Shown here piece after piece: positions 3,110 through 36,486 of a stretch of 40,193 bases of DNA. Source of the stretch: a virus. The position numbers and the translations under genes were made by a program. Every line of letters starts with the position of its first letter. Within the stretch, counting starts at the first letter, position 1. The notes beneath the pieces are model-generated. The model was not told the DNA's origin. It searched no databases and saw only the letters and a program-made list of their open reading frames with translations. Location of the stretch: positions 1 to 40,193 of the IMG/VR virus record IMGVR_UViG_3300025154_000219, one strand, 5' to 3'.

Positions 3110-3607
3110 TTAATCGTCTATAGATCCCAGGCTTGCTTTCCCCTGTTGATCTATTAGGTGTCCGTATCGCTCTTTCATCTGCCTCTGGTACCGATCTCTC
3201 CAGTACCCGTCCGGCATGGACTTTATGTGGTCCTGTACCATTCTCACCAGCCGAGTGGCTTCTCCATTTGCCCCCGAACTTAGATGGCCGGAGATTCTCT
3301 CGCTTAACTTGTCGAAGACCGTAGTAAAATCTGCCGCCATCTCTTCATCTTTCATCAACTCCACAATAGCATCCACCTGTCCACTGACGGATAAAACCTT
3401 ATCCTGCGTCGCCAGCCAGCTTATGTGTCGGTGGAGTGCGTGGCGAAGTAGATCTCCCTTCGTCCTATAGGGGAATTTCTTCCCCGCTATCACCTGTTCA
3501 ATCTGTCTTGCCATCTGAGGGATGGTCCTGAACCAGTGACGGGCAGAATGACCGTTAGTGTCTGAAGCTGTAATCCTAAAGTCCATTGGGTTAATTTCAT
3601 TCGACAT
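3110..3607 (-). CDS. Conserved-looking hypothetical protein, possible DNA-binding N-terminus
   Basis: This is a 165-residue protein that I do not recognise. A segment around residues 45-65 (FPYRTKGDLLRHALHRHISWL) resembles a ribbon-helix-helix or related short DNA-binding helix pair. The rest is helical and charged. There are no membrane segments or cysteine motifs. Its start overlaps the end of the HTH gene (3597-3607), and AAAAGG lies about 10 bp upstream of the ATG, so the two are probably translated together at the head of the leftward replication operon. A role as regulator or replication accessory is only a guess from position. Confidence 0.65.
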   Translation of the reverse strand: MSNEINPMDFRITASDTNGHSARHWFRTIPQMARQIEQVIAGKKFPYRTKGDLLRHALHRHISWLATQDKVLSVSGQVDAIVELMKDEEMAADFTTVFDKLSERISGHLSSGANGEATRLVRMVQDHIKSMPDGYWRDRYQRQMKERYGHLIDQQGKASLGSIDD

Positions 3608-4536: not shown

Positions 4537-4581
4537 AACTGTAGTTCTACTAATCAAGTGCAAAAACAAGGAGGAAGACAA

Positions 4582-5700
4582 ATGAAACGAGGTAAATTGA
4601 ACATTGTATTTGGGGGTCAGGCCGGATCTGAAGCCAAGGGTAAACTCTCAGGGTTTCTGGCCGACAAATTTCACCCGGACCTACTGGTCATTACAGCCAG
4701 TCCAAATGCGGGACACACCATTATTATGCCTGGCGGGGAGAAAAAGGTAAGCTATCACCTCCCGATAGCCATGGCTATGTGTGACTGTCCTGTCATTCTA
4801 ACGGCAGCCAGTCTGATAAACTTTGATATCCTGGTGAAGGAAATAGAGGATCTGGGTGTGGATCCCAAACGGATCATTATCGACCCCAGAGCGTCTATCA
4901 TCCATAACCATCACATCGAATTGGAAGAGAAGGGAAAAAAGTCGGACATCGGGTCCACCCTCCAGGGTATAGGGGAATGCCGAATGTCGAAGATGATGAG
5001 GCTGGGTCGAGGTCATCATACTCTTGCCTATGACATCCGGGACATGTTTGATGGTTTGGGGATTGGGGTATTGGATTACCCATCCTCCGTTTGGGTGAAC
5101 GAGGCCCTATACTTCGGGGGGATGGTACTCTGCGAATCTACTCAGGGGTTCGACCTTGACTTGGAGCACGGTATCGATCCGGTCTACTGCACGTCGAAGA
5201 TGATCAACCCTTCAATGATTGCGGCTGAGGCGGGAGTTTCACCGGCAATGGTTGGTGATGTGGTGGCGGTCATCCGCCCCTACCCCATCCGGGTTTCCAA
5301 CCGCACTGGAACCAGTGGACCCTACGCTGACGCTAAGGAGATAGACTGGTCTACCGTTGCCCTTCGCTCAGGTTGTCCCCACGAACTGAAGGAAATCACT
5401 ACTACGACTAAACTTCCTCGCCGGGTCTTCGAGTTCTCCTGGGATCGCTTCTCTCATATGCTCCGGGTATGCCGTCCTACTTCCATCTGCCTCCAGTTTG
5501 CTAACTACCTGGACTGGTCAGTCTATGACCGAACTGACTTCGGGGATGATAGTTTTGAGGGGTTCGATCCAGTCTCCACCTTCATTCAAAGACTGGAGTC
5601 CTACAAGGTTCCCGTGGAATTCGTCGGTACTGGTCCAGGTCACGGGTCTATGATCTGGAGGAAGAACGCCAGGGAACTGATGATAGGCAGGAAAGACTGA
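4582..5700 (+). CDS. purZ: PurZ, N6-succino-2-amino-2'-deoxyadenylate synthase
   Basis: PurZ condenses dGMP with aspartate using ATP to give N6-succino-2-amino-dAMP, the committed step to dZTP; host PurB and kinases finish it. At 372 residues it carries the adenylosuccinate synthetase framework: GGQAGSEAKGK (residues 11-21) where PurA has GDEGKGK, NAGHT with catalytic-type His45, GSTLQGIG, ESTQGFDLDLEHG, and RPYPIRVSNRTGTSGPY. The PurA catalytic Asp is Ser16, the substitution that marks phage PurZ. The second Gly of the loop is Ala18, an added peculiarity. The start is ATG 4582 behind AAGGAGGA; the in-frame GTG 4558 lies upstream of that SD. It overlaps mazZ by one base. Confidence 0.93.
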   Translation: MKRGKLNIVFGGQAGSEAKGKLSGFLADKFHPDLLVITASPNAGHTIIMPGGEKKVSYHLPIAMAMCDCPVILTAASLINFDILVKEIEDLGVDPKRIIIDPRASIIHNHHIELEEKGKKSDIGSTLQGIGECRMSKMMRLGRGHHTLAYDIRDMFDGLGIGVLDYPSSVWVNEALYFGGMVLCESTQGFDLDLEHGIDPVYCTSKMINPSMIAAEAGVSPAMVGDVVAVIRPYPIRVSNRTGTSGPYADAKEIDWSTVALRSGCPHELKEITTTTKLPRRVFEFSWDRFSHMLRVCRPTSICLQFANYLDWSVYDRTDFGDDSFEGFDPVSTFIQRLESYKVPVEFVGTGPGHGSMIWRKNARELMIGRKD

Positions 5701-6263
5701 TGGCCGGTGATAGACAAGGCTTTATGGGGGACAATTCCATGTGTAATCACACCGTTGACTGCGACTGCTCGGTCTGCCAGGAATTTAACCGGTGTTTAGG
5801 CCCAGAAAACCTTGAGTGGTTTGCGGGTGAACATCCGAAACCAACACAGGAGGAAGGATCGATGAGTGATGACAAACTGTATGAGGCGGCTATGGAGAAG
5901 GAAAGGAGAAGGACGGAGGAGGGGACCAGGAATTCCTTCCGGACAGTGAAGGAAGAAAAGTCACAGGAGAAGGTTCCCTTCGCCGACATGCTCTCCGACT
6001 TTCACCTTGCTCTCACCGAAGTAGCCCGAGTTACATCTTTCGGCAACCAGAAGTATGGTGAACCTGGAGGCTGGCGAAAGGTCGAAGGTTTCCAGCGGTC
6101 CTACCAGAATAAAAAGGCAAGGCATGCTATGGAAGGTTTACTTCAGGATTTCGACGGGGAATCTGGCCTATTCTGTCTTGCTCATGAAGCCTGGAACGCT
6201 CTCGCCTTGCTGCAAGACAAGCTGGAGAAGATCGAGGGAGATAAGCGGAGAAGCTCTCGATAG
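5700..6263 (+). CDS. mazZ: MazZ-type dATP/dGTP diphosphohydrolase
   Basis: This enzyme family hydrolyses dGTP and dATP to monophosphates plus pyrophosphate. In Z phages it feeds dGMP to PurZ and lowers dATP. The C-terminal 125 residues fit the all-alpha DUF5664/MazZ pattern: LTEVARVTSFGNQKYGEPGGW, then RHAMEGLLQD, ESGLFCLAHEAWNALALL, with the expected Glu, Lys, Tyr, His and Asn positions. The start overlaps the purZ stop as TGATG. An internal ATG at 5862 has a much stronger SD (AGGAGGAAGG) and would give a 133-residue enzyme containing the whole catalytic domain. The extra N-terminal 54 residues include a cysteine cluster (MCNH, DCDCSVC) that may bind zinc. Either one long or two nested products is possible. 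Confidence 0.85.
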   Translation: MAGDRQGFMGDNSMCNHTVDCDCSVCQEFNRCLGPENLEWFAGEHPKPTQEEGSMSDDKLYEAAMEKERRRTEEGTRNSFRTVKEEKSQEKVPFADMLSDFHLALTEVARVTSFGNQKYGEPGGWRKVEGFQRSYQNKKARHAMEGLLQDFDGESGLFCLAHEAWNALALLQDKLEKIEGDKRRSSR

Positions 6264-6296
6264 GCTTTCCTTTTGTTTTCTTTGAGGATGAACAAA

Positions 6297-6323
6297 AAAG
6301 CCGGGGTTGATGGCCCCGGCTTT
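6297..6323. terminator. Bidirectional rho-independent terminator
   Basis: AAAGCCGGGG and CCCCGGCTTT form a 10-bp stem around the loop TTGATGG. An A-run lies on the left and CTTTCCTTT on the right. It lies between the convergent mazZ and the leftward gene ending at 6356, and so can end transcription from both sides. Confidence 0.9.
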
Positions 6324-6355
6324 CCTTTGTGTGTCTTCTTTGGGGTGAAGGCTGG

Positions 6356-6622
6356 CTATGGAGTTACAAGCTCAAAATCTGACTGAAGAACCCAGTACCA
6401 GTCTTCTCCCCCCGCACAGTAGTCATGTAAATTGGTTGGTTTAACCATCATTCCCTTCTCTGCCTCCCGGAATCTGTGGGCGCCATACATTTCATCTCCA
6501 GGAATGGCTACAACTTCAGTTTCATCCCCAACTTCTACCCCTGGATACTGCCACCTATGGCATTCAATTCCCCTATCCTTCCCATCCAATCCTGTCCGCC
6601 TAACTCTATCACCTTTTTTCAT
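6356..6622 (-). CDS. Small SH3/KOW-like hypothetical protein, paralogue of the gene at 7092
   Basis: This is an 88-residue protein with a short beta-rich sequence. It begins KKGDRVRRTG, as SH3- or KOW-like barrels do, and contains ETEVVAIPGDE and DWYWVLQSDFELV. The protein encoded at 7092-7328 shares the same three blocks, so the two are tandem paralogues separated by one gene. The ATG at 6622 has AGGAGGAAGGACC upstream. It is the last gene of the leftward accessory cluster and ends at the bidirectional terminator. No biochemical function can be assigned. Confidence 0.75.
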   Translation of the reverse strand: MKKGDRVRRTGLDGKDRGIECHRWQYPGVEVGDETEVVAIPGDEMYGAHRFREAEKGMMVKPTNLHDYCAGGEDWYWVLQSDFELVTP

Positions 6623-6661
6623 TGGTCCTTCCTCCTGTATGGTTGTGGTTGTGGTTTCCAG

Positions 6662-7024
6662 TTATCCCTTCGGTTTCTCCGCTTTGAACTCGATATACTC
6701 ATAGGTCCAGGATTTGGTGGATGCTGCGATGATTGCCGGGATGCGGTCTGCATCCAACCCCTCAGCCAGCAGAACTTCCACCAGTTTGGTCCCGTCTATG
6801 GCCGAACCTCCACCCGATCTGCAGTTCAGTTTTCCCACCCCACCGGTCTCACTGGTAGTTATGCCGAATGACGCCATCAAGGGTAGAATGGATTCCTTCA
6901 CCGATTTCTTAATGTCCTCACCTTCATCTATGAGGGTCTTCGCACGTTTCATAGCCATTGCTGCCCGATCTAATTCCGCTTTGATTTCAGGTGGTATAAT
7001 GGTCCCTGTTTCTTCAGTCTTCAT
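6662..7024 (-). CDS. Hypothetical protein, 120 residues
   Basis: I do not recognise this 120-residue protein. An N-terminal helix (residues 12-50, IKAELDRAAMAMKRAKTLID and following) is followed by a Gly/Ser-rich turn (GGVGKLNCRSGGGSAIDG) and a C-terminal alpha/beta part ending KSWTYEYIEFKAEKPKG. The helical start plus central loop recalls small phage proteins related to host-nuclease inhibitors, but the match is not good enough to name. The start chosen is ATG 7024, with TAGGAGGAAAGGATCA upstream. The longer frame to 7246 overlaps the neighbouring gene. The tiny ORF 7021-7086 ends on this start as ATGA. Confidence 0.7.
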   Translation of the reverse strand: MKTEETGTIIPPEIKAELDRAAMAMKRAKTLIDEGEDIKKSVKESILPLMASFGITTSETGGVGKLNCRSGGGSAIDGTKLVEVLLAEGLDADRIPAIIAASTKSWTYEYIEFKAEKPKG

Positions 7025-7086
7025 TGATCCTTTCCTCCTATTATTGCACCCCACACTATCAGGGTAATTAGCACCCAAGCTATCAT
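7021..7086 (-). CDS. Possible 21-residue hydrophobic peptide
   Basis: ATG 7086 opens MIAWVLITLIVWGAIIGGKDQ, a single hydrophobic helix with a short polar tail. It stops as ATGA on the next gene's start, and its last codons contain that gene's SD. It starts five bases after the stop of the upstream gene. It could be a small membrane peptide or a coupling ORF that feeds ribosomes to the next start. Confidence 0.4.
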   Translation of the reverse strand: MIAWVLITLIVWGAIIGGKDQ

Positions 7087-7091
7087 TGGTC

Positions 7092-7328
7092 CTACTCTTC
7101 CACTTTTCTGAAGTCTTCCTGGAAATTCCAAACCCAATCTGGTCCCCTACCACCAATAATTTTTCCTGGGTAGGGTTTGTGGATAAACCCCTCATCTGGG
7201 AGAGTAAACTGCTGTTCGTCGTACTCAGGGTCTCCGGGAACGGCAATTACTTCAGTCTCTATTCCTTTAGTAGTAAATTCATCTTCCACTAATCCTATAA
7301 CCTTATCTCCCTTCTTAAGTCTACTCAT
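7092..7328 (-). CDS. Small SH3/KOW-like hypothetical protein, paralogue of the gene at 6356
   Basis: This 78-residue protein shares KKGDKV at the start, ETEVIAVPGD in the middle and DWVWNFQEDFRKV at the end with the 88-residue protein at 6356-6622. The conserved pattern suggests one small beta-barrel family duplicated within the accessory cluster. The start is ATG 7328 behind AGGAGGAGGACCAG; the ORF remains open upstream but lacks a better site. Its function is unknown. Confidence 0.75.
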   Translation of the reverse strand: MSRLKKGDKVIGLVEDEFTTKGIETEVIAVPGDPEYDEQQFTLPDEGFIHKPYPGKIIGGRGPDWVWNFQEDFRKVEE

Positions 7329-7782
7329 TCTGGTCCTCCTCCTGTCGACCGTCACCAGCCATTAATCGTTTTAGGGCTTCAATCCGGTCGTCTCTCCGGT
7401 ATGCTTCCCTTTTCACTGCAATGTACTCCTGGTTTTCCTTTCTCCACTTGGCCTTCCTTTCCTTCGTCCTAATGCCGCTGACCTCTGGGTCGTATCCGTA
7501 CTGACGATAGATCTCCACTCGGTGAATTGTGTCCGCCAGTCCTTCCTGAAACAATAGGCGCACTACCTCTGGATCTATCCCTGACCTGGAACAGTTGCCA
7601 CAAACAACAAATCGGTTTATTTGCTCTGTGGATAGTTGGAGAAGAGAGCAGGTTGGTTGAGGTCTGCCCTTTAATCCAGTCCTATATTTCTTCGGTTTGG
7701 GCCATCGGGGTACTTCTTCAGTCATTAGCAGTATTGCCTCCTGAGCGAGAGCACGATTAGCTTCACAGGACCGTTCGTTCAT
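7321..7782 (-). CDS. Hypothetical cysteine-containing protein, start uncertain
   Basis: This is a basic, mostly helical protein of 153 residues from ATG 7782. It has a cysteine pair VCGNC near residue 61 and a long charged C-terminal helix (RTKERKAKWRKENQEYIAVKREAYRRDDRIEALKRL). The ATG has no SD. The same frame stays open upstream and would add RIECDYFTCT directly before MNERSC, making a CxxxxC-type motif that looks genuine. In that extension GAGGGAAGG is followed by ATA GAG TGC, with no ATG, GTG or TTG. The true N-terminus may therefore be longer. The gene overlaps the next by eight bases at its end. Confidence 0.6.
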   Translation of the reverse strand: MNERSCEANRALAQEAILLMTEEVPRWPKPKKYRTGLKGRPQPTCSLLQLSTEQINRFVVCGNCSRSGIDPEVVRLLFQEGLADTIHRVEIYRQYGYDPEVSGIRTKERKAKWRKENQEYIAVKREAYRRDDRIEALKRLMAGDGRQEEDQNE

Positions 7783-7826
7783 TGTACAGGTGAAGTAATC
7801 GCACTCTATCCTTCCCTCAGGCGGCT

Positions 7827-8573
7827 TTATTCGTTTGGGTCTGAGGATACCCCCTTCTTTTCCTTCTTCGGTTTGGGGGTTTTTTCTTCGGCCTTTGCTG
7901 CAGTCTTGGCTTCGGCTTTGGCTGCTTTTTTCTCTTCAGCCTTGATGGCCGCTGCAGCTTCTGCTTCTGCCTTTTTCTTTGCTGCAGTCTTCGCCTTTGC
8001 TTCAGCCCTGATCTTCTTCTCTTCTTCCAGGATGGTCAGTTCTTTCACACTGAACCAGTCCAGAGTCTTCTGAGCGTCACCCAGGCCGTCCTTGGCATCC
8101 CCAACCAGTCCGGTAGTCTGCTTCAGGTCGAAGAGGCTCAGGGGATGGCGGGTAGATGTGAATTTGGTGGTGGAGCGAAAGACCATACGGCTGATAATAT
8201 CCACCATCGCAGGCAGGTCGAGGACTGTGCCATCTTTTACGGTAAATTCGAGTAGACCACCTTCAGCATCCCAATCCAGTTCCGGAACTACAACCCCGAT
8301 CCGGTTAAAGGCGGCTACCGATCTGTTGTGGAGCTTTCCCAGGGCTACAGCATCACTGACGATGACGGTGATGGGTCCGATGGGTTCGGCAGTAAATCCA
8401 AGGGCTGCCAGATCTTCAGCCAGTGAGGAAGGGAAGTCGATCGAAGCCCTGTCCTTTTTCTCAAAGCTGATCTCCAGATTGGTCTGGGTCTTGTGGCCCT
8501 TTACCTCAAATGTGGTTCCTTTTACTGCATTTTTTGCTGCTGCTTTGATGATAATACTAATTGATGTGTTCAT
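7827..8573 (-). CDS. Hypothetical protein with long Ala/Lys/Glu tail
   Basis: This is a 248-residue protein. The first 170 residues look globular and alpha/beta, starting MNTSISIIIKAAAKNAVKGTTFEVKGHKTQTNLEISFEK. The last 75 residues are almost only Ala, Lys and Glu with a PKPKKEKK end, a probable extended helix or disordered basic tail that could contact nucleic acid. I do not recognise the family. The ATG at 8573 has TGGAGGAAAGTC upstream. The tail resembles the low-complexity linker of the protein at 691-1497, although the globular parts do not obviously match. Confidence 0.7.
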   Translation of the reverse strand: MNTSISIIIKAAAKNAVKGTTFEVKGHKTQTNLEISFEKKDRASIDFPSSLAEDLAALGFTAEPIGPITVIVSDAVALGKLHNRSVAAFNRIGVVVPELDWDAEGGLLEFTVKDGTVLDLPAMVDIISRMVFRSTTKFTSTRHPLSLFDLKQTTGLVGDAKDGLGDAQKTLDWFSVKELTILEEEKKIRAEAKAKTAAKKKAEAEAAAAIKAEEKKAAKAEAKTAAKAEEKTPKPKKEKKGVSSDPNE

Positions 8574-33819: not shown

Positions 33820-36486
33820 CTAACCTTTCTTCAGCGATCCCCACTTCTTTCCTTCCTTGAAGTCTATCTCCAGGGGGACTAGGAAGTGGGGAGGGGCGGA
33901 AGCCTCAAGTTCCACTTTCACCCTACTTTTAGCCAGGGGAGCAATGTCTTCTCCCATCTCCCAGACTATATCATCGTGAATCTGGATGAGAGGTCTAACT
34001 GGTCCAAGGTCTAATTCCTCCAATTCCCTGTAGATGGGGACCAGTCTCCCCATCCCTTCTTTGATAATGCCTTGAGCGCCCATCTGAATTGGGGCGTTTC
34101 CCGCTTGTCTCTCAGCCTCAATCCGACTCCATTTGTTTGTCGACTTTATTCCCGGAATATATCGGATGCGCCCCCACATATCCCGGACGTATCCGTGGCG
34201 CTTGGCGTACTCTCCGTTTGACTTCATGTAGGCTGCAATACCAAAGTAAATCTCAAACCATGCCTTGACCATCTGGCGGCAGTCGTCAAGGGAATGAATG
34301 GTACTTCCTCCCGTCACCAGTTCTCGATGAAGACCTTCGGCTGTAATAAGATTGAGGATACCAAACCCAACTCTCTTCGCCGGGTATCGGTGCTTCTTCT
34401 CATCTACCTGGGACAATGGAATCCCGAACATTTCACTGGCCGTAATTGCGTGTATGTCTTCTCCGTTTAGGAAGATGGAGATCATCTTAAGATCTTTAGC
34501 TTCACTGGCTGCCACCCTCATTTCTACCTGGGAGTAGTCACCAGAAACTAGGATGCAGTTCTCCTCCGCCTCATAGCAGTCCCGGACCATCCGGCCTTCA
34601 CTGGATCTAACCGGTTGGGCCATCAGATTGGGCTTTGATGAAGAAAGTCGTCCGGTAGCCACTCTCGTCATCCGGATTGTGGTTCTTATTCTACCATCAT
34701 GGGATACCATCTTAGGAATTGCATCAGCGTAGCTGGACTTCAGCTTGGCGTAACCACGCCAGTCTATGATGTCCTGTACCACAGGGTGTAGGGGGAGGTA
34801 ACGCTTCAGAATGTCGTCAGCGGTGCTTTCTTTTCCGCCCTTTTTTGCCTTATGGCTCCCCCCTTTATCCTGTAGTCTAAGTTTGTGGAAGATTAGGTCT
34901 GTCATCTGTGGTGCTGAGTTTGGATTTAGGTTGACCCCAGACGGGAAGTGGTGTCCAACTAAGGCTTGAATCTTTCGCTGGATCAAATCCATCCGTGACT
35001 GAAGATAGACACTGAGATTAGCGAAGGATTCCAGATTAACCTTCATCCCGTTAGCCATCATGTCCACCACCATGGGCATCGCCTTCATATCACGCCTGAG
35101 AGTACCCTCCAACCCCAGGGAAACAATCCTAGCCCATAAACCTGGGTACACTCGGATAGTGGCGTCTGCATCCCTCGCCGAATAGTAGACCGCATCTTCC
35201 CTATCAATGTCGCACAGTTCCCCCTCCGTAAGCGGTCCGAGGATTTCCTCCACGACCTCCTTCCCTTCCTGTATTGCCTTCCATGAGTCCCAGGGGTCAG
35301 CTTCTCCCGCCTCCACCGCCTTAAGGATTCTGGTGATCTTTCGGATAATATTCTGTGGCGTGCGTACATACGGTTCTCCCTTCTTCCACTCCAAGACCAG
35401 TTCGGGGTCTGGGTAGGTGAGTGTGGCTGCTGTCTCCAGGTACTCTTGGGCCTTCAACCGTGTTGCCTCCCCCACCATCTCACCATAGGACCTCATCTTC
35501 ATTCCGCAGTGGCGGTAGGCGAGGGGCTTTAGTCCTTGAGGTTCGTTCTGCAACAGATAGGCCATAACCATGGTATCCACCACCTCTCTCGGTTCTATCC
35601 CCACTCTTCGGAGGACCGGAAGATCGTAAAGAGCGTTTTGGATGGCTGTTATAGTCTGCGGATGGGCTAAGAGACGCTGGAGAGCGGAGAGCGAGGCCTG
35701 TTGGTCCGCCATGACCACCCATGCTGTCCCTGGGGCTATGGATAGGCTAAGACACCACATGGCCCCCTTTGCCCACTCGGTGTCCACGGCCACTACCAGT
35801 TTTCCGGGGATAAGACCCTGATGTTCGGCGTAGAGGGGTACGCAGTCTGAAGATAGGGGAAAGGTATGGCTGTCGTTGATGACATGGTAACTCTCCTTAC
35901 CCTCGAAGGTGTCTACAGGGGGGAGGGGGGAAATTTGCCCCTTGACTACTTGACCAGCAATCACCATATCCGTGTGGAATAGGATGAGGACTTCGGGGGA
36001 ATGGATTCCCGCTGCCGGGTGGTAAGCTGGGATGAGAGTACAGTGATGGCCATCTATCTCCACCGGCCTCGGAATTCCGTGGGTAAGCTCCATATCTACG
36101 TCTCCAAGGAAGTATTGGGTAGCTGGTCTTCCCATGGAGATGATGAATTTGGGCTTCAGAGCTTTGATCTGGGGTCGAAGGTGGAGGTCAGTGCAGGTCC
36201 GGATCTCATCAGCCGTTGGGGTTCGATTGTCGGGGGGTCGGCAGAGACAGGTGTTGGTGAGGTAAACCCCGAACTGAGAAATACCATTAATGTCCAGGTG
36301 GTGTCTAGCTTCCTCCCCGCTGGTCCCGATAAGTGGGCGGGAGTACTTATTCTCCTCGTAGCCCGGAGCTTCAGCGATGACCATCACCCTTGGGTGAGGG
36401 ACTGGACCGGAGGAGTAAATCTCACCGGGGCAGGGACGGACTCCAGGAGCTGCAAGAGTACACTGGTGGCAATGGTCAGACCTCAT
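33820..36486 (-). CDS. Family A DNA polymerase fused to type-4 uracil-DNA glycosylase, candidate Z-adapted polymerase
   Basis: This is an 888-residue replicative polymerase. Residues 1-200 are a type-4 UDG: AEAPG (38-42), LTNTCLCRPPDNRTP (76-90), AYHPAAGI, and iron-sulphur cysteines C6, C9, C82 and C98 (spacing 2 and 16, as in the family). Residues about 230-480 are a 3'-5' exonuclease: D235/E237 in AVDTEW, then NALYDLP, and YYSARDAD. The polymerase shows motif A DYSQVEMR (D650), motif B RYPAKRVGFGILNLITAEGL, and motif C QIHDDIVWE (837-839). In motif B, Phe708 equals E. coli F762, but the usual Tyr766 is Asn712. ATG 36486 overlaps the upstream gene as ATGA. A link to dZTP use is inference. 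Confidence 0.92.
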   Translation of the reverse strand: MRSDHCHQCTLAAPGVRPCPGEIYSSGPVPHPRVMVIAEAPGYEENKYSRPLIGTSGEEARHHLDINGISQFGVYLTNTCLCRPPDNRTPTADEIRTCTDLHLRPQIKALKPKFIISMGRPATQYFLGDVDMELTHGIPRPVEIDGHHCTLIPAYHPAAGIHSPEVLILFHTDMVIAGQVVKGQISPLPPVDTFEGKESYHVINDSHTFPLSSDCVPLYAEHQGLIPGKLVVAVDTEWAKGAMWCLSLSIAPGTAWVVMADQQASLSALQRLLAHPQTITAIQNALYDLPVLRRVGIEPREVVDTMVMAYLLQNEPQGLKPLAYRHCGMKMRSYGEMVGEATRLKAQEYLETAATLTYPDPELVLEWKKGEPYVRTPQNIIRKITRILKAVEAGEADPWDSWKAIQEGKEVVEEILGPLTEGELCDIDREDAVYYSARDADATIRVYPGLWARIVSLGLEGTLRRDMKAMPMVVDMMANGMKVNLESFANLSVYLQSRMDLIQRKIQALVGHHFPSGVNLNPNSAPQMTDLIFHKLRLQDKGGSHKAKKGGKESTADDILKRYLPLHPVVQDIIDWRGYAKLKSSYADAIPKMVSHDGRIRTTIRMTRVATGRLSSSKPNLMAQPVRSSEGRMVRDCYEAEENCILVSGDYSQVEMRVAASEAKDLKMISIFLNGEDIHAITASEMFGIPLSQVDEKKHRYPAKRVGFGILNLITAEGLHRELVTGGSTIHSLDDCRQMVKAWFEIYFGIAAYMKSNGEYAKRHGYVRDMWGRIRYIPGIKSTNKWSRIEAERQAGNAPIQMGAQGIIKEGMGRLVPIYRELEELDLGPVRPLIQIHDDIVWEMGEDIAPLAKSRVKVELEASAPPHFLVPLEIDFKEGKKWGSLKKG

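What the first reader, a model, noticed from the sequence alone, without database searches (positions are those of the whole stretch)
34325..34390. Unusual O-helix in the family A polymerase: conserved Tyr replaced by Asn
Motif B reads RYPAKRVGFGILNLITAEGL. Aligned to Pol I, Lys and Phe762 are kept, but the Asn before Phe is Gly, Tyr766 is Asn712 and the next Gly is Leu. Tyr766 stacks at the nascent base pair and affects selection. In a phage expected to prefer dZTP over dATP, this is a good candidate adaptation site.
Basis: partly seen in the sequence, partly recalled or inferred. Interest (0 to 1): 0.7.

Follow-up and report, generated by a model that had tools for sequence, protein, structure and literature searches.

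The report
Z-phage polymerase lacking a key tyrosine
A phage that carries the gene for replacing adenine by 2-aminoadenine (Z) in its DNA encodes a copying enzyme in which an almost universal active-site tyrosine is asparagine, and in related phages this tyrosine is nearly always missing when the Z gene is present and kept when it is absent, which marks a likely site of adaptation to Z-DNA.

Summary
The 888-aa ORF on the minus strand (33820-36486) is a UDG + 3'-5' exonuclease + family A polymerase fusion, and Asn712 aligns with E. coli Tyr766. The window also encodes PurZ (Ser in the GSEAKGK loop) and a DUF5664 dATP/dGTP diphosphohydrolase.

Among UDG-PolA homologues thinned to 70% identity, 18 of 19 from PurZ+ records lack the Tyr (Asn 14, Phe 3, Thr 1). 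In PurZ- records of at least 30 kb, 25 of 27 keep it. Of 842 columns, this one tracks PurZ best. A single origin of the non-Tyr state is rejected (p-AU 0.0005). A 60%-identical relative with a syntenic replication block but no PurZ at the expected place has Tyr. Both published Z-selective polymerase groups have Phe here.

Limits: Asn is also standard in a distant PurZ- lineage of about 570 aa, and occurs in three PurZ- UDG-PolA records. Four PurZ+ records keep Tyr. So loss of Tyr is neither sufficient nor strictly required.

Best reading: the Tyr hydroxyl network is repeatedly dismantled in Z phages, with Asn/Thr a new variant beside the known Phe. Z-over-A selectivity has not been measured.

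The parts
33820..36486 (-). UDG-exonuclease-family A DNA polymerase fusion, 888 aa
   Evidence: ORF; Pfam UDG, DNA_pol_A_exo1, DNA_pol_A; phrog_17; AF2 model mean pLDDT 91.8
34330..34389 (-). Motif B / O-helix RYPAKRVGFGILNLITAEGL (residues 700-719)
   Evidence: helix 696-711 in the model
34351..34353 (-). Codon AAT, Asn712, at the position of E. coli Tyr766 (Taq 671, Bst 714)
   Evidence: association with PurZ
34522..34524 (-). Glu655, equivalent of E. coli Glu710 / Bst Glu658, H-bond partner of the Tyr in ordinary Pol I
   Evidence: motif A SGDYSQVEMR; partner role from PMC12756729
36010..36408 (-). UDG-superfamily domain, residues 27-159; Cys6, Cys9, Cys82, Cys98 invariant in 11 relatives
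   Evidence: PF03167 E 4e-19
35494..35796 (-). 3'-5' exonuclease domain, residues 231-331 (Asp235, Glu237, Asp288; Asp439 just outside)
   Evidence: PF01612; invariant columns
33838..35025 (-). Family A polymerase domain, residues 488-883
   Evidence: PF00476 E 5.7e-89; Klenow/Bst folds
4558..5700 (+). PurZ, 2-amino-adenylosuccinate synthetase (GSEAKGK, Ser in place of the PurA Asp); start probably the ATG at 4582
   Evidence: phrog_1211 E 5.5e-55; PF00709; translation; tree
5700..6263 (+). DUF5664 dATP/dGTP diphosphohydrolase-like protein (MazZ-like role)
   Evidence: PF18909 E 5.7e-15; phrog_801

Best explanation
The gene encodes the replicative family A polymerase of a Z-genome phage, and Asn712 is one case of a recurrent change in such polymerases: loss of the motif B tyrosine (Tyr766). 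Shown: the residue, the PurZ/DUF5664 genes in the same contig, and the association across the family with several separate switches. Inferred: Phe, Asn and Thr share only the lack of the phenol hydroxyl that in ordinary Pol I bonds Glu710 and lines the minor-groove side of the nascent pair. Removing it would make closure depend more on the base pair's own stability, favouring Z:T and G:C (three hydrogen bonds) over A:T (two), and would leave room for the minor-groove 2-amino group. Asn or Thr might also contact that group. The residue is probably one contributor alongside proofreading and pool control (PurZ, DUF5664), not a single switch.
For: In UDG-PolA (70% thinning) 18/19 PurZ+ lack Tyr against 2/27 PurZ- records of at least 30 kb; Fisher 1.2e-9, uncorrected for kinship; best of 842 columns. 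Hits from a later PolA pattern scan, with PurZ status read after the residue: L346 Asn with PurZ, L386 Asn without. In the scan before that (residues read), PurZ was then found in 5 of 8 new non-Tyr records; two of the other three are fragments under 18 kb. One origin of the non-Tyr state is rejected, p-AU 0.0005; independent pairs on well-supported branches go the opposite way 0.0 times on average. Natural contrast: G017 (Tyr, 60% identity) has a syntenic replication block but no PurZ where G010 and the window have it. PhiVC8, PSA28, SH-Ab 15497, Kokobel2, ZP6, Bm1, Wayne and Ghobes all have Phe. PMC8599892 names this Phe as the only change shared by both DpoZ groups. PMC12756729: Tyr714 bonds Glu658, and Ser714 bonds the template guanine 2-amino group in simulation.
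Against: Asn without PurZ: G068 and G113 (sister lineages), G158, and a whole distant lineage of about 570 aa (no PurZ in its records of at least 32 kb). Phe without PurZ in L228 and L233. Tyr with PurZ: Hiyaa, G061, G112, G041. Tyr-to-Phe Taq polymerase works with ordinary DNA, and phiVC8 DpoZ selectivity was not tied to one residue (PMC8599892). Sign tests on supported branches lack power. Virus records may be fragments, so PurZ absence is provisional. No kinetics, and no proof that this phage's DNA contains Z.
Confidence: 0.6

Rival explanations
1. The Tyr loss adapts the enzyme to reading Z in the template strand (and to moving along stiffer Z-DNA), not to choosing dZTP over dATP.
For: In Bst Pol I the Tyr lies against the templating base, and Ser714 contacts the template guanine 2-amino group in simulation (PMC12756729). 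The same association with PurZ is expected.
Against: Tyr enzymes copy template G, which also has a 2-amino group in the minor groove, without trouble, so the need for change is not obvious.
Confidence: 0.2
2. Hitch-hiking: the residue is a neutral or fidelity-relaxing variant of polymerase lineages that travel with the purZ module.
For: The PurZ and polymerase genes lie 7-9 kb apart in the window's group (coordinates); Asn persists without PurZ in G068, G113, G158 and the distant lineage.
Against: Several separate switches. Three different residues replace Tyr in PurZ+ records. Tyr is found in the window's own clade in a record where PurZ is absent from its usual place. It is the best of 842 columns.
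Confidence: 0.13
3. Z preference comes from proofreading and the pol-exo switch, as proposed for phiVC8 DpoZ, with the O-helix residue only tuning fidelity.
For: Exonuclease carboxylates are kept (Asp235, Glu237, Asp288, Asp439). PMC8599892 argues for this in phiVC8 DpoZ.
Against: It does not explain why this column is the best correlate of PurZ in the family.
Confidence: 0.2

Closest known systems
phiVC8-like DpoZ (DpoZ-2; PMC8599892, PMC12884076)
   Same: PolA with 3'-5' exonuclease from a PurZ phage; Tyr766 replaced (Phe459).
   Different: Window enzyme has Asn, keeps Phe762 (Leu in phiVC8), has an N-terminal UDG domain, lacks the O-helix insertion 2, and no DatZ was found in the record.
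Wayne/Ghobes DpoZ (DpoZ-1, PurZ0 phages)
   Same: PolA with Tyr766 replaced by Phe; DUF5664 in Wayne (PMC12884076).
   Different: Separate polymerase branch (SH-aLRT 100); PurZ0-type PurZ.
Klenow / Bst / Taq Pol I
   Same: Fold and catalytic motifs (Z up to 38.3; E about 3e-89).
   Different: Tyr766 and Gly767 replaced; a UDG domain at the N-terminus.
UDG-fused PolA of Pseudomonas phages Almagne and Lebethron and of MW202455
   Same: UDG-exo-pol layout.
   Different: About 25-28% identity, Tyr present, no PurZ; a thymidylate synthase gene is annotated in Almagne and MW202455, and MW202455 also a pyrimidine-HMase.

Membership tests
DNA polymerase family A | Palm/fingers domain with motifs A, B, C | tested here: met
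   PF00476 E 5.7e-89; Klenow alignment; fold Z 36-38
DpoZ (Z-selective PolA) | Encoded with PurZ | tested here: met
   window 4558-5700, phrog_1211
DpoZ (Z-selective PolA) | Phe in place of motif B Tyr | tested here: not met
   Asn712
DpoZ (Z-selective PolA) | phiVC8-type insertion 2 in helix O | tested here: not met
   No insertion between K704 and the preceding Arg against Klenow
DpoZ (Z-selective PolA) | Lies in the DpoZ-1 or DpoZ-2 clade | tested here: inconclusive
   Separated from Wayne/Ghobes; phiVC8-like rows were too divergent and left out of this tree
DpoZ (Z-selective PolA) | Prefers dZTP over dATP | not testable with these tools
   needs enzyme kinetics
PurZ | Adenylosuccinate synthetase fold with Ser for the catalytic Asp | tested here: met
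   GGQAGSEAKGK; GSExKG in every PurZ row where the loop was matched. That Ser-for-Asp marks PurZ is from my own knowledge.
UDG family 4-like | UDG domain with four Fe-S cysteines | tested here: met
   PF03167; Cys6, 9, 82, 98 invariant in 11 relatives; that these are the Fe-S ligands is from my own knowledge; activity untested

The most novel reading that the evidence does not exclude
Asn712 (or Thr) forms a direct hydrogen bond to the minor-groove 2-amino group of Z, so this UDG-PolA lineage is a third, separately evolved Z-selective polymerase type that reads the extra amino group itself.
Probability: 0.2. Interest if true: 0.8.

Novelty: new variant of a known kind. Interest (0 to 1): 0.62.

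Why it matters
How Z phages exclude adenine at the polymerase is open: the structural study of phiVC8 DpoZ found no single determinant and had two clades to compare. The UDG-PolA family supplies several separate Tyr-to-Asn/Phe/Thr switches that follow PurZ, with Tyr relatives at 60% identity and informative exceptions on both sides. That turns the question into a tractable mutant and homologue panel. It also adds uncultured Z-phage polymerase lineages: the full-length best hit among 50,697 phage records is about 28% identical.

Tried and rejected
Sequencing error or misalignment: rejected. Asn as a Z-specific signature: rejected by the NFGILNGMG lineage and by G068, G113, G158. PurZ missed in G068: also searched with PF00709 and the window PurZ, still none (the protein search had no positive control). 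One ancestral loss of Tyr: rejected. DatZ in the window: none found with PF12917 (the same search found one in G106). BpsS-140 as another PolA test case: it encodes a PolIII (DnaE)-like polymerase in two frames and gave no PolA hit, so it says nothing. The host genome scan gave only cellular PolA with Tyr. Phylogenetic sign tests were underpowered: 3-5 pairs on supported branches.

Full report
What is there. The ORF at 33820-36486 (minus strand, 888 aa) carries a UDG-superfamily domain, a 3'-5' exonuclease domain and a family A polymerase domain. Motif B reads RYPAKRVGFGILNLITAEGL at 34330-34389; codon 712 is AAT. A profile of the window's relatives aligns to Klenow without a gap from Lys704 across the O-helix, so Asn712 stands at Tyr766, Phe708 at Phe762, Gly707 at Asn761 and Leu713 at Gly767. 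A 37-sequence AlphaFold2 model (mean pLDDT 91.8) has the Klenow/Bst fold, with the O-helix at 696-711.

Is this a Z phage? The window encodes an adenylosuccinate synthetase of the phage PurZ family (phrog_1211) with GSEAKGK, that is, Ser at the place of the PurA catalytic Asp (the meaning of this swap is from my own knowledge). Directly downstream is a DUF5664 dATP/dGTP diphosphohydrolase-like gene. No DatZ was found. The PurZ falls in a 15-row group (SH-aLRT 99) apart from phiVC8-type PurZ and from the PurZ0 of Wayne, Ghobes and Hiyaa. Z in the DNA itself is not shown.

The comparison asked for. I collected UDG-PolA relatives from IMG/VR by protein, profile and DNA-pattern scans and tested each whole record for PurZ. 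Sampling was not done on PurZ status. Thinned to 70% identity, PurZ+ records have Asn 14, Phe 3, Thr 1, Tyr 1; PurZ- records of at least 30 kb have Tyr 25, Asn 2 (Fisher 1.2e-9, not corrected for kinship). At 55% thinning it is 11/12 against 2/26 (7e-7). Of 842 columns this one ranks first. In the scan, eight new records had a non-Tyr residue; PurZ was then found in five of them. Of the other three, L201 and L206 are fragments under 18 kb, and L205 (56 kb) is a true exception. A last PolA pattern scan for Asn added L346 (70.8 kb, PurZ+) and L386 (49.8 kb, PurZ-); these two are not in the figures.

Is it more than shared ancestry? On a tree built without the O-helix columns the non-Tyr state changes 10 times and PurZ 7 times. 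Holding all non-Tyr rows together is rejected (p-AU 0.0005). Independent pairs on supported branches average 2.6 with PurZ and residue moving together and 0.0 opposite, but only three such pairs exist, too few for significance. Inside the window's own clade (100/100 support) three rows, L036, L037 and L046, have Tyr; L036 is nested among Asn rows, so a return from Asn to Tyr is likely there. The L037 record (G017, 25 kb) shares the polymerase, ERCC4-nuclease, Sak4-like and helicase block with the window and its relatives G010 and G011. The 4.8 kb beyond the helicase hold no PurZ and no relative of the 165-aa protein that sits next to PurZ in the window, G010 and G011. The record is incomplete, so PurZ elsewhere is not excluded.

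Known Z phages. PhiVC8, PSA28, SH-Ab 15497, Kokobel2, ZP6 and Bm1 have Leu at 762 and Phe at 766; Wayne and Ghobes have Phe at 766. The structural paper on phiVC8 DpoZ names this Phe as the only characteristic change shared by both DpoZ groups, yet argues that no single residue explains selectivity (PMC8599892). A 2026 study recognises two DpoZ groups among NCBI viral proteins (PMC12884076). The window's enzyme lacks features of the phiVC8 group and lies apart from Wayne/Ghobes, and Asn and Thr at this position are, as far as I could find, not described for Z phages.

Exceptions. Asn without PurZ: G068 and G113 (sister lineages; UDG-exo and pol in two frames), G158, and a large lineage of PolA of about 570-625 aa with KAVNFGILNGMG or a similar motif (no PurZ in its records of at least 32 kb). 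Phe without PurZ: L228, L233. Tyr with PurZ: Hiyaa and G061 (PurZ0 branch), G112 (nearest PurZ0, weaker support), G041. So loss of Tyr is strongly associated, not diagnostic.

Mechanism. In Bst Pol I the equivalent Tyr714 bonds Glu658, lines the pocket and competes with the template base. In simulations of Y714S, Ser bonds the 2-amino group of template guanine 92% of the time (PMC12756729). Y766S in Klenow opens the active site and lowers fidelity (PMC3121766). Phe, Asn and Thr share the loss of the phenol hydroxyl. I infer that weakening this network shifts the closure checkpoint onto base-pair stability and makes room for the 2-amino group, favouring Z:T. A direct Asn-Z contact is possible and unproven.

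Verdict. The proposed adaptation site is well supported as a correlate. The claim that Asn itself confers Z preference is untested and cannot hold alone.

Noticed in passing
L101/L156, L205, L206, L222, L052, L053, L074: In several relatives the UDG-exonuclease part and the polymerase part lie in separate, often overlapping frames, suggesting a split enzyme or a frameshift.
   Followed up: partly
L044, L054, L066, L203: Polymerase ORFs with large in-frame insertions (1024 to 1773 aa in all), in L044, L054 and L066 seen between polymerase segments; probably inteins.
   Followed up: no
L337-L389, e.g. L375:2320-4020: A large uncultured PolA lineage of about 570-625 aa with Asn at the Tyr766 position and no PurZ; its best phage-record hits are under 30% identity. 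Why it lost the Tyr is unknown.
   Followed up: partly
L386 (G158): UDG-PolA with Asn and no PurZ, in a record with a gene upstream that looks like ThyX by eye.
   Followed up: no
L326 (G112:5001-25000), 6036-8093: PurZ next to a gene that looks like a nucleoside 2-deoxyribosyltransferase (DmtZ-like, by eye), with a Tyr UDG-PolA: a PurZ0-type layout.
   Followed up: partly
window 3110-3607: 165-aa protein beside purZ, kept in G010 and G011 (58-62% identity) but not found in the Tyr relative G017; no Pfam family above its cut-off.
   Followed up: no
window 33820-36486: M622-A623 replace the Gln677-Asn678 pair of Pol I; position 623 also tracks PurZ in the column scan (Ala in all PurZ+ rows), but also follows clade.
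   Followed up: partly
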